Made by a program: the position numbers and the translations under genes. A DNA stretch of 20,138 bases from a virus. Positions 2,481-7,054 of the stretch are shown here, one piece after another. The notes below the pieces were generated by a model. The model was given only the letters and a program-made list of their open reading frames with translations. It was not told the DNA's origin and ran no database searches. Within the stretch, counting starts at the first letter, position 1. Every line of letters begins with the position of its first letter. The stretch covers positions 1-20,138 of IMG/VR virus record IMGVR_UViG_3300030117_005018, one strand, 5' to 3'.

Positions 2481-2793
2481 TAGTAGTCCAGTTGTAGCAC
2501 AAGCTCCACTAAAAGAATATTTTACTAATAAACCAGTTATATGTGGGCCGGTAGATAAAATTATAGATACTTCAAAAAATCTTGGGGAAGACCCTTTGTT
2601 ATCTGCAGATGGATTAACTTTGTTAGATAACAAAACACTATCAACAACTCCATCAAAGTATGTTTTTGGATTTAATCAAAAAACTGGAACTTGGACTTTG
2701 ATTGAACTTTTACCAGATGGTGTTCAAGCTTGTGTTTTAGGTAAAGGTAAAAGAATTAGAATATACACTAAAGAAAGCGGAATTAATTTATAA
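2431..2793 (+). CDS. Exported hypothetical protein
   Basis: 120 aa with a clear signal peptide: a KKFK n-region, hydrophobic core MSVVILSGLLF, and an A-Q-A cleavage site after residue 25. The mature part is about 95 aa with two cysteines (C38 and C101) that could form a disulfide in the periplasm. I do not recognise the family. The start at 2431 keeps the basic n-region; a second ATG at 2446 would lose it. It overlaps the end of the exonuclease gene by 50 nt and is the last protein gene before the tmRNA. Confidence 0.75.
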   Translation: MKKFKMSVVILSGLLFNSSPVVAQAPLKEYFTNKPVICGPVDKIIDTSKNLGEDPLLSADGLTLLDNKTLSTTPSKYVFGFNQKTGTWTLIELLPDGVQACVLGKGKRIRIYTKESGINL

Positions 2794-2800
2794 TAAGCCC

Positions 2801-2829
2801 TTGACATACAAGAAAAAATATGTTATAAA
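2801..2829 (+). promoter_or_regulatory. Sigma70-type promoter for the tmRNA
   Basis: TTGACA at 2801-2806, a 17-nt spacer, and TATAAA at 2824-2829. It is preceded by CC, as in the promoters at 16187 and 18890. Transcription should begin near 2836, just before the acceptor piece of the tmRNA. The -10 hexamer is also the first part of a T4 late element (TATAAATA, 2824-2831). Confidence 0.8.
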
Positions 2830-2831
2830 TA
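2824..2831 (+). promoter_or_regulatory. T4-type late element TATAAATA overlapping the tmRNA -10
   Basis: An exact TATAAATA occupies the -10 position of the sigma70-type promoter. If used by the late sigma, the start site would be about the same base, so the tmRNA could be made both early and late. This is an inference from sequence alone. Confidence 0.45.
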
Positions 2832-2835
2832 ACTC

Positions 2836-3107
2836 ATAGTTTGTTGATACAATTCGACAATTGGACAGGACTTGGGGGCAGTACCCAACGCCTCCACCAA
2901 AATGAGATTAAATTAGTCTTTTTTTGATGGGGGCGAACTAGGATCGACTGACAAGGATAGAGGCGAGTAGAACTATCGGATGACTGCGTTATTAGTCAAA
3001 ACTACTAAATGCAAACGATAACTTTGCACCTGTAGATTACGCACTAGCTGCTTAATCGTACTGAGTTCGGTGGGTACTTGGAAACAGAAACCCACCACCA
3101 GTTTCAG
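2836..3107 (+). ncRNA. ssrA: Circularly permuted (two-piece) tmRNA
   Basis: The acceptor piece comes first. A 5-bp T stem (2872-2876/2884-2888) with a 7-nt loop runs directly into CGCCTCC (2889-2895) and ACCA (2896-2899). After a 29-nt spacer the coding piece starts with GGGGGCG (2929-2935), which pairs with CGCCTCC over 7 bp. The third pair is G-U, the alanine identity signal. Next come the tmRNA hallmark GGATCGAC (2941-2948), a GATAG/CTATC helix (2956-2960/2973-2977), and the resume codon GCA at 3011. The tag is ANDNFAPVDYALAA, ending in TAA at 3053-3055. A pseudoknot-like GGTGGGT/ACCCACC plus GAAAC/GTTTC element (3069-3105) follows. This order, 3' half before 5' half, is that of alphaproteobacterial two-piece tmRNA. 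Both outer ends are estimates. It would rescue stalled ribosomes and tag nascent peptides for proteolysis. Confidence 0.93.
3011..3055 (+). other. tmRNA proteolysis tag reading frame
   Basis: Codons GCA AAC GAT AAC TTT GCA and onward encode ANDNFAPVDYALAA and end at TAA. The ANDN start and ALAA end match the general form of bacterial tmRNA tags recognised by ClpXP-type proteases. The upstream context (AAACTACTAAAT before GCA) is typical for the resume codon. Confidence 0.9.
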
Positions 3108-3385
3108 AGTTTGGCGACGGCCAAAATCGTGTTGTGCAAGGAAGAGCTTCTCACCAAGAGTTGCGAACTTGACTAGTTAGAGGTGGTACTCAGGCATGGT
3201 AGTGGAAACACGCTGTGTCACATCAATCTACCGATTGGAACTAGGTTCTGGGAATAAACAAGAATGGTATCTTGGTTTCTCAGTTGTAGGTGTACCCAAG
3301 TCCTACCAACACAAAATAATGGCGCACGTGGTACAGCCATCAATGTCGTAAAATACCACAAAAGGGTCACTACTTAATAAGTGCG
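3108..3385 (+). ncRNA. Structured RNA between tmRNA and terminator, unassigned
   Basis: This stretch has no credible protein gene and is richer in G+C than its neighbours (27 of 60 bases at 3121-3180, against 14 of 60 at 3481-3540). Helices readable by eye: TTTGGC/GCCAAA (3110-3125); GAAC and CTAGTT (3165-3178) with AACTAGGTTC (3239-3248); GGTAG/CTACC (3198-3202/3228-3232); CTGGGAA/TTCTCAG (3248-3254/3277-3283) with an inner AAGA/TCTT; GTTGTAGG/CCTACCAAC (3283-3310); and ATGGC/GCCAT (3319-3340). The loops of the last two are complementary (TGTACC 3291-3296 with GGTACA 3330-3335). It may be a tmRNA 3' trailer, a separate small RNA, or the leader of the oxygenase gene. I do not recognise it as a named RNA family. 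Confidence 0.6.
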
Positions 3386-3413
3386 TGTGGAGCCATGGTT
3401 AGCTCCACATTTT
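3386..3413 (+). terminator. Intrinsic terminator after the tmRNA region
   Basis: TGTGGAGC (3386-3393) and GCTCCACA (3402-3409) form a perfect 8-bp stem around an 8-nt loop, followed by TTTT. It ends 17 nt before the start codon of the 2OG oxygenase, so that gene lies directly behind the terminator. It would end the tmRNA transcript or act as a conditional terminator for the next gene. Confidence 0.75.
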
Positions 3414-3430
3414 AAAAATGAGGAATTTGA

Positions 3431-4132
3431 ATGTCAGAAACAAAATCTCAATTTGCACCATTATTTGCCAATGCATTTGGTTTTAATAATTTTGGTGAAT
3501 CTAGTCGTGAATTAAATAAACAATTAATAGAGGACATAGAAAAAGAGAGAAGTGACAATGATGGGAAAAATAAAACTTTTAGAAAAAATCCATGTGGTTG
3601 GCAATCAGTTGCAGGTATAGAAAATAAATATGAAAGTTTTCAAAAACTTGGTGAAAAGATAATAAAAGCTTTTATTCCAATAGTACATAGTAGTGGAATC
3701 CATCCAGAAGAATACAAAAAATTTGTTTTAGGTCAGTTTTGGGCAAATGTTATATTTGCAGCTGGTGGTTTTTCAAATCCTCACATACATGGTAATGGAA
3801 ACACCACTTGGACAGGTGTTTATTATCCAAAAGGTTTAGAAGAAATTGATGACCTAGACGATTTTGATTCAAAAAAATATTTTCAATATACTGTTAATAA
3901 AACTCCTGGCTCACTAGTTTTAAAAGACCCATCTGGAACTGCTAAAAGACAAGTAAAATCTGGTTTAAGAGATCAAAGATATTATTCTACTAATTTTAGT
4001 GTAATTCCAAGAGAGTCATTACTAATTCTTTTTCCTGCCTATATGGAGCATTATGTAACACCAACAATAGATGACTCAAAGAGATATAGTATATCTTTTG
4101 CGTTTCATAGAATGATACCCCATTTGGGATGA
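3431..4132 (+). CDS. 2OG-Fe(II) oxygenase family protein
   Basis: 233 aa resembling the putative phage/bacterial 2-oxoglutarate/Fe(II) oxygenases of the TIGR02466 type. The core has NPHIHGNGNTTWTGVYYP at 117-133 (iron ligands among H118/H120), a later LLILFPAYMEHYV with H207, and KRYSISFAFH with R218, the expected 2OG-carboxylate ligand. Such enzymes hydroxylate or demethylate protein, nucleic acid or small molecules; the phage substrate is unknown. A GAGGA at 3420-3424 lies 6 nt before the ATG, and the terminator hairpin lies just ahead of that, so readthrough would decide expression. It is followed closely by gp33. Confidence 0.82.
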   Translation: MSETKSQFAPLFANAFGFNNFGESSRELNKQLIEDIEKERSDNDGKNKTFRKNPCGWQSVAGIENKYESFQKLGEKIIKAFIPIVHSSGIHPEEYKKFVLGQFWANVIFAAGGFSNPHIHGNGNTTWTGVYYPKGLEEIDDLDDFDSKKYFQYTVNKTPGSLVLKDPSGTAKRQVKSGLRDQRYYSTNFSVIPRESLLILFPAYMEHYVTPTIDDSKRYSISFAFHRMIPHLG

Positions 4133-4159: not shown

Positions 4160-4405
4160 ATGCAAGAACCAACATTTGAAGTAAAGAGTACTTTACAAAC
4201 ACCAAAAAAGTTTTCACTAGAAATAGAAAATATAGTTAAAGAAAAACGTATCTCTCACATGGATGCAGTAATTGATTATTGTTATCAAAATGATATAGAA
4301 CCAGATACAGTAGGTAGACTTATAACTAAAAGTCTTAAAGAAAAAATTGAAGCAAATGCAAGGGAATTAAATTATTTAGAAAAACAAGCAAAATTGCCAA
4401 TTTAA
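4160..4405 (+). CDS. 33: gp33-like late transcription co-activator
   Basis: 81 aa, all helical in appearance, matching the short gp33 versions of marine T4-like phages: a central MDAVIDYCYQNDIEPDTVGRL region (34-54), then KSLKEKIEANARELNYLEKQ. In T4, gp33 binds the RNA polymerase beta flap and links the sliding clamp to late promoters. The late-promoter-like TATAAATA sites in this window fit that role. An AGGA lies 8 nt before the ATG. The assignment rests on resemblance over a short length. Confidence 0.7.
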   Translation: MQEPTFEVKSTLQTPKKFSLEIENIVKEKRISHMDAVIDYCYQNDIEPDTVGRLITKSLKEKIEANARELNYLEKQAKLPI

Positions 4406-6958: not shown

Positions 6959-7012
6959 GTCTGGTCAACCTGCTCAGAAGCTAAAGGCCTCACTGGCATC
7001 TGACCAAAAGAC
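6959..7012 (+). other. Hairpin immediately after the gp32 stop codon
   Basis: GTCTGGTCA (6959-6967) pairs with TGACCA (7001-7006) and AGAC (7009-7012), with a two-base bulge. This gives about a 10-bp stem that starts one base after the stop, ahead of the terminator hairpin. It may protect the gp32 mRNA 3' end; that role is an inference. Confidence 0.5.
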
Positions 7013-7014
7013 TA

Positions 7015-7054
7015 ATGCTCCCCTTAGTGCACTAATTATGGGGGGCATTTTTTT
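7015..7054 (+). terminator. Strong intrinsic terminator after gp32
   Basis: ATGCTCCCC (7015-7023) pairs with GGGGGGCAT (7040-7048) over 9 bp with one G-U, followed by seven T (7048-7054). It ends the plus-strand block where it meets the minus-strand tail block; the stop of the tape-measure gene lies in the T run. Confidence 0.9.

What the first reader, a model, noticed from the sequence alone, without database searches (positions are those of the whole stretch)
3108..3430. Structured RNA with a predicted kissing loop and a possible terminator switch ahead of the 2OG oxygenase
Seen: two neighbouring hairpins (3283-3310 and 3319-3340) have fully complementary 6-nt loop segments, TGTACC and GGTACA. 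GTGGTA (3328-3333), overlapping the second, can instead pair with TACCAC (3354-3359). CCACA (3356-3360) can in turn pair with TGTGG (3386-3390), which is the 5' arm of the terminator. The terminator ends 17 nt before the oxygenase ATG. Inference: formation of the kissing loop would free TACCACA to block the terminator, a riboswitch-like layout. The duller reading is a tmRNA trailer with its own terminator.
Basis: partly seen in the sequence, partly recalled or inferred. Interest (0 to 1): 0.7.

Follow-up and report, generated by a model that had tools for sequence, protein, structure and literature searches.

The report
manA RNA plus unlisted phage motif
The structured stretch between a phage tmRNA and an oxygenase gene is a known but unexplained marine RNA (manA), followed by a small pseudoknot and a second RNA motif that is found only in viruses, is common in marine ones, and is missing from the RNA database; the proposed terminator switch is not supported.

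Summary
3110-3316 is a manA RNA (Rfam RF01745, 66.1 bits against a cut-off of 55.2), a published riboswitch candidate with unknown ligand, lying 10 nt after an alpha-type tmRNA. The proposed contact with the downstream hairpin is lost in L193 and L271, the relatives that carry both elements. That hairpin and the GTGGTA/TACCAC pair instead fit one H-type pseudoknot. The 'terminator' fails a terminator scan. It is a copy of a conserved two-hairpin motif ('motif B', 3363-3409): at least 120 viral matches, no true match in 84,980 prokaryote species, no Rfam match, and all 11 pairs covary. tmRNA and oxygenase also occur together without manA (L084, L005). Motif B occurs once per genome in the genomes checked, in varied contexts. 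I favour a phage-specific structured RNA of its own, perhaps processed and trans-acting; that function is inferred. The terminator switch is not supported; manA as a riboswitch candidate stands.

The parts
2801..2831 (+). Promoter of the tmRNA transcript: TTGACA (2801-2806), 17 nt, TATAAATA (2824-2831); reads both as a sigma-70 promoter and as a T4-type late box
   Evidence: sequence; the same layout stands before tmRNA in about 40 related loci. The automatic promoter scan missed it because its second hexamer (TATAAA) lacks the required final T
2797..3099 (+). permuted alpha-type tmRNA (ssrA), tag ANDNFAPVDYALAA
   Evidence: Rfam RF01849 136.6 bits and RF04321 121.7 bits; ARAGORN 2807-3146
3110..3316 (+). 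manA RNA (RF01745). P1 hairpin 3110-3125; closing helix 3129-3134 with 3307-3312; penultimate hairpin 3259-3274; last hairpin 3286-3306
   Evidence: cmscan 66.1 bits, E 4e-15, full length 1-192, cut-off 55.2; MFE fold of 3105-3420 gives the same helices
3266..3296 (+). manA internal kissing loop: GGTA 3266-3269 with TACC 3293-3296
   Evidence: 93 distinct loop pairs, mean complementarity score 7.74 against 6.82 +/- 0.18 when loops are re-dealt, 0 of 500 shuffles as high
3319..3359 (+). H-type pseudoknot: S1 3319-3323 with 3336-3340, S2 3328-3333 with 3354-3359
   Evidence: kept with compensatory changes in L193 and L271; L005 keeps S2 fully and S1 only in part. Four sequences only
3363..3409 (+).
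   Evidence: model R1 72.6 bits, E 1e-16 (the window copy is one of the 56 sequences the model was built from); 56-sequence alignment with two-sided changes at all 11 pairs
3431..4132 (+). 2OG-Fe(II) oxygenase gene
   Evidence: Pfam PF13759 E 3e-11, PHROG 81 E 1e-27
4160..4405 (+). gp33-like late-transcription coactivator
   Evidence: Pfam PF16805 E 8e-21

Best explanation
The stretch is a string of separate noncoding RNA modules on one phage transcript: promoter, tmRNA, manA RNA, a short H-type pseudoknot, motif B, then the oxygenase and gp33 genes. Shown by comparison: manA is a family member; its last two hairpin loops covary as a kissing contact; motif B is a conserved RNA structure carried by viruses. 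Inferred: manA acts as its own folded domain (ligand or partner unknown), and motif B is an independent RNA, most likely a roughly 50-nt processed stable RNA or protein-binding element that works wherever it is transcribed, rather than an intrinsic terminator switched by manA. Expression of the oxygenase may be affected, but no terminator/antiterminator exchange is needed or supported.
For: manA: 66.1 bits over the curated cut-off. Internal kiss: loops change together (window GGTA/TACC, cyanophages CTGT/ACAG, L167 GCTT/AAGC; by reading, L092 AGGAT/ATCCT, L174 CTGAT/ATCAG) and beat 500 of 500 re-dealings. Motif B: helix 1 paired in 56 of 56 sequences, 193 cells changed on both sides against 58.9 shuffled; G-U 27 cells against A-C 7, so the + strand RNA is the folded form; at least 120 viral stretches, none true in 84,980 prokaryote species, no Rfam hit; one copy per genome in nine records that carry it. 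Context independence: nine copies lie within about 10 nt of a tRNA gene on the same strand; others follow tmRNA or gp32, or precede gp33, the oxygenase or the clamp loader. Module independence: tmRNA + B + oxygenase without manA (L084, L005); manA without B (Mosig, L147, L108, P-SSM2).
Against: No expression data for any of these loci, so a processed RNA is inferred from position only. One copy per genome also fits a cis-element: manA too gave one match per genome in the records that carry it. 27 of 60 motif B copies lie 8-40 nt before a start codon, as a leader element would. 16 of 60 have a run of four or more Ts soon after helix 2, so some could terminate transcription. The loop conservation in alignment A1 is partly forced by the search pattern; the helices are not.
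Confidence: 0.7

Rival explanations
1. Transcription-attenuation riboswitch: manA is the aptamer and the 3387-3408 hairpin the terminator, with TACCACA as antiterminator.
For: manA is a riboswitch candidate (PMC2864571); 46 of 84 distinct pelagiphage-type manA RNAs are followed within 110 nt by a terminator-like hairpin; the window's helix 2 is followed by TTTT.
Against: The scan finds no terminator; CCACA/TGTGG is not kept in L005 or L271; the hairpin stands without manA in L084, L087, L088 and L005; its loop and its partner helix are conserved, which a terminator does not need; the downstream kissing pair is not kept.
Confidence: 0.07
2. Motif B is a cis-acting element, for example a translational operator or stability element bound by a phage protein, that controls the next or the previous gene.
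For: 27 of 60 distinct copies lie 8-40 nt before a start codon and 21 of 60 sit within a few nt of a stop codon; neighbours are often replication or late-transcription genes (gp32, gp33, clamp loader).
Against: Neighbouring genes are unrelated between phages and include tRNA genes on either side; some copies have a convergent gene downstream (4 of 60).
Confidence: 0.3
3. manA here is an ordinary 5'-leader riboswitch acting on translation or stability, and motif B is a neutral passenger.
For: Rfam files manA as cis-regulatory; cyanophage copies lie directly before gp32, transaldolase-like and Hsp20-like genes (names by eye from the sequences, except that related gp32 and Hsp20 proteins were matched to PHROGs).
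Against: In L330, L348, L378, L405, L406, L408 and L429 manA is followed by a convergent gene, so it cannot be a leader there; motif B is too conserved to be a passenger.
Confidence: 0.25

Closest known systems
manA RNA motif (RF01745; Weinberg et al. 2010, PMC2864571)
   Same: Full-length covariance-model match over cut-off, same multistem layout, marine phage setting; the published 'pseudoknot?' probably corresponds to the loop-loop contact found here
   Different: Here it sits between tmRNA and the gene, with further RNA elements between it and the start codon; in other phages it can lie before a convergent gene
Melnitz tmRNA plus glutamine riboswitch cassette (PMC9004378)
   Same: tmRNA, then a regulatory RNA, then motif B (unannotated there), then gp33
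   Different: Glutamine riboswitch RF01739 in place of manA; the paper does not mention motif B or manA in the passages read
GOLLD and ROOL RNAs of phages (PMC12286853)
   Same: Phage-borne RNAs of unknown function, often near tRNA islands
   Different: Much larger and ornate (GOLLD often over 800 nt); motif B is about 47 nt and two hairpins
Intrinsic (rho-independent) terminator
   Same: GC-rich hairpin followed by a few Ts
   Different: Conserved loops, a second conserved hairpin, and mostly no T run (44 of 60 copies)

Membership tests
manA RNA (RF01745) | covariance-model score over the curated cut-off across the whole model | tested here: met
   66.1 against 55.2 bits, model 1-192
manA RNA (RF01745) | multistem junction closed by a long-range helix | tested here: met
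   MFE fold pairs 3129-3134 with 3307-3312 and forms the inner hairpins
manA RNA (RF01745) | pseudoknot marked '?' in the original paper | tested here: inconclusive
   a loop-loop contact inside manA covaries across 93 distinct pairs, 0 of 500 shuffles as high; that it is the same contact as the published one is my inference, because the published figure and Rfam seed were not available
manA RNA (RF01745) | location in the 5' UTR of a gene | tested here: inconclusive
   upstream of the oxygenase here, but with motif B and a pseudoknot between; in L330, L348, L378, L405, L406, L408, L429 the next gene is convergent
metabolite-binding riboswitch | a ligand that changes the fold or expression | not testable with these tools
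   I know of no ligand for manA, and the papers read name none
intrinsic terminator | GC-rich hairpin followed by at least 5 Ts in 8 | tested here: not met
   0 terminator-like sites in 2700-3480
terminator/antiterminator switch | conserved alternative pairing that excludes the terminator | tested here: not met
   CCACA/TGTGG not kept in L005 or L271
any Rfam 15 family, for motif B | match to a curated model | tested here: not met
   no match at motif B on its own strand up to E 5 in the window, at gathering score in 18 loci, or up to E 1 in five loci; the one other window match, snoU13 at E 1.2, is a chance hit on the opposite strand
alpha-type permuted tmRNA | tmRNA model match with tag reading frame | tested here: met

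The most novel reading that the evidence does not exclude
Motif B is the signature of an undescribed virus-only class of small structured RNA, processed from tRNA, tmRNA and mRNA transcripts and acting in trans (on host RNA, ribosome or polymerase) during infection of abundant marine bacteria.
Probability: 0.4. Interest if true: 0.82.

Novelty: new variant of a known kind. Interest (0 to 1): 0.6.

Why it matters
manA has been an orphan riboswitch candidate since 2010. The phage sequences here give covariation for a loop-loop contact that the original paper marked as uncertain, and show copies that cannot be 5' leaders, so its 'cis-regulatory' label needs review. Motif B, inside the same coordinates, appears to be an unlisted RNA motif common in marine viruses and without a true match in 84,980 prokaryote species. 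One cultured phage (Melnitz) carries it, so it can be tested directly.

Tried and rejected
Kissing of 3291-3296 with 3330-3335: not kept in L193 or L271. Terminator switch: no terminator by scan, no conserved antiterminator. tmRNA trailer alone: manA and motif B each occur without tmRNA next to them. T4-type late promoter just before motif B as an explanation of AGGGT as a start site: 6 of 60 copies against 2.5 expected, not general. blastn of a 47-nt motif B against phage records found nothing; the covariance model finds a copy in Melnitz, so that BLAST search was too insensitive and its silence means nothing. The one relaxed genome hit (Winogradskyella) has helices that do not pair. Motif B as a tRNA fragment: loops resemble anticodon and D loops, but ARAGORN calls nothing there. 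Literature searches for a published description of motif B found none in the open-access library, which does not cover subscription journals.

Full report
Setting. The window is a 20,138-base virus record with T4-like genes: PhoH, exonuclease, gp33-like coactivator, ThyX and others. The stretch in question runs from the end of a permuted alpha-type tmRNA (2797-3099) to a 2OG-Fe(II) oxygenase gene (3431-4132).

What the stretch is. Rfam places manA RNA (RF01745) at 3110-3316 with 66.1 bits against a curated cut-off of 55.2. The unconstrained fold gives the same main helices. manA was described by Weinberg et al. in 2010 as a riboswitch candidate of marine samples and T4-like cyanophages, with a pseudoknot marked uncertain (PMC2864571). 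I found it at 177-184 bits in P-SSM2, P-SSM4 and P-TIM68 and in many viral contigs.

The kissing loop. In manA the loops of the last two hairpins are complementary and change together: GGTA/TACC in the window, CTGT/ACAG in cyanophages, GCTT/AAGC in L167, with further swaps read directly in L092 and L174. Over 93 distinct loop pairs the mean score is 7.74, against 6.82 (sd 0.18) when loops are re-dealt, with 0 of 500 as high. The re-dealing does not keep the relatedness of the sequences, so the number is not a probability. The hairpin finder chose a wrong hairpin in some rows, which weakens rather than creates the signal. Its match to the downstream hairpin turns up in 2.4% of shuffled spacers and is lost in L193 and L271, the relatives that carry manA and the same downstream element.

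The spacer. The downstream hairpin (ATGGC/GCCAT) and the GTGGTA/TACCAC helix can form together as an H-type pseudoknot. L193 and L271 keep both helices with compensatory changes; L005 keeps S2 and part of S1. L005 has this element and motif B but no manA, so it is a separate module. No Rfam family matches it. Four sequences is thin support.

The 'terminator'. 3363-3409 matches a pattern AGGGT-N4-[AC]CTTAATA-N4'-CGYG-stem-CAYGGTTA-stem that recurs across viral contigs. In a 56-sequence alignment all 11 pairs show two-sided changes, helix 1 pairs in every sequence, and the share of paired cells, the two-sided changes and the covariation score lie far above the shuffled and slid controls. G-U pairs outnumber A-C mismatches 27 to 7, which points to the + strand RNA. 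Rfam has no match. I call it motif B. A terminator scan does not recognise it, and 44 of 60 distinct copies have no run of four Ts just after it.

Context of motif B. Nine large records that carry it hold one copy each, Melnitz among them. Mosig, HTVC008M, P-SSM2, P-SSM4, S-PM2, syn9, S-SCSM1, P-TIM68, S-SKS1 and T4 gave no match (run with stricter filters). Copies follow tmRNA (L084, L087, L088), follow gp32, precede gp33, the oxygenase or the clamp loader, or lie within about 10 nt of a tRNA gene on the same strand in L176, L188, L195, L217, L278, L216, L201, L179 and L267. This independence of neighbours favours an RNA with a function of its own, but 27 of 60 copies also sit 8-40 nt before a start codon, so a cis role is not excluded.

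Modularity. tmRNA, motif B and oxygenase occur together without manA in L084 and L005; manA occurs away from tmRNA in Mosig, before a rubrerythrin gene; Melnitz has a glutamine riboswitch where the window has manA (PMC9004378). The transcript probably starts at a promoter conserved in about 40 relatives, TTGACW-17-TATAAATA, which reads as both a sigma-70 promoter and a T4-type late box.

Verdict. The finding is a real structured region, mostly a known family. The terminator-switch mechanism is not supported.

Noticed in passing
2801-2831: The tmRNA promoter joins a sigma-70 layout (TTGACA, 17 nt, TATAAA) with a T4-type late box TATAAATA on the same bases; conserved in about 40 related phage loci.
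   Followed up: partly
L330, L348, L378, L405, L406, L408, L429: manA RNAs followed by a gene on the opposite strand, several with a terminator hairpin between, so they cannot be 5' leaders as Rfam's 'Cis-reg' label implies.
   Followed up: partly
L443 and 19 other cyanophage-type loci: manA directly upstream of a gp32-like single-strand DNA-binding protein gene (named by similarity to the gp32 protein, not scanned itself).
   Followed up: no
L060 6400-6450, L332 about 870-920, L370 (minus strand): Another shared element between manA and motif B: GATGCCTATG..AATAGGTTCGGTTGAAAAAAATCGGTAAGATC, hairpins by eye, no Rfam hit in L060.
   Followed up: no
L161 (Melnitz) 3354-3402: Glutamine riboswitch sits where the window has manA, between tmRNA and motif B.
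   Followed up: partly
window 6959-7050: After the gp32 stop codon lies a different stretch with inverted repeats (TGGTCA...TGACCA, then a T-run hairpin), where many relatives carry motif B.
   Followed up: no
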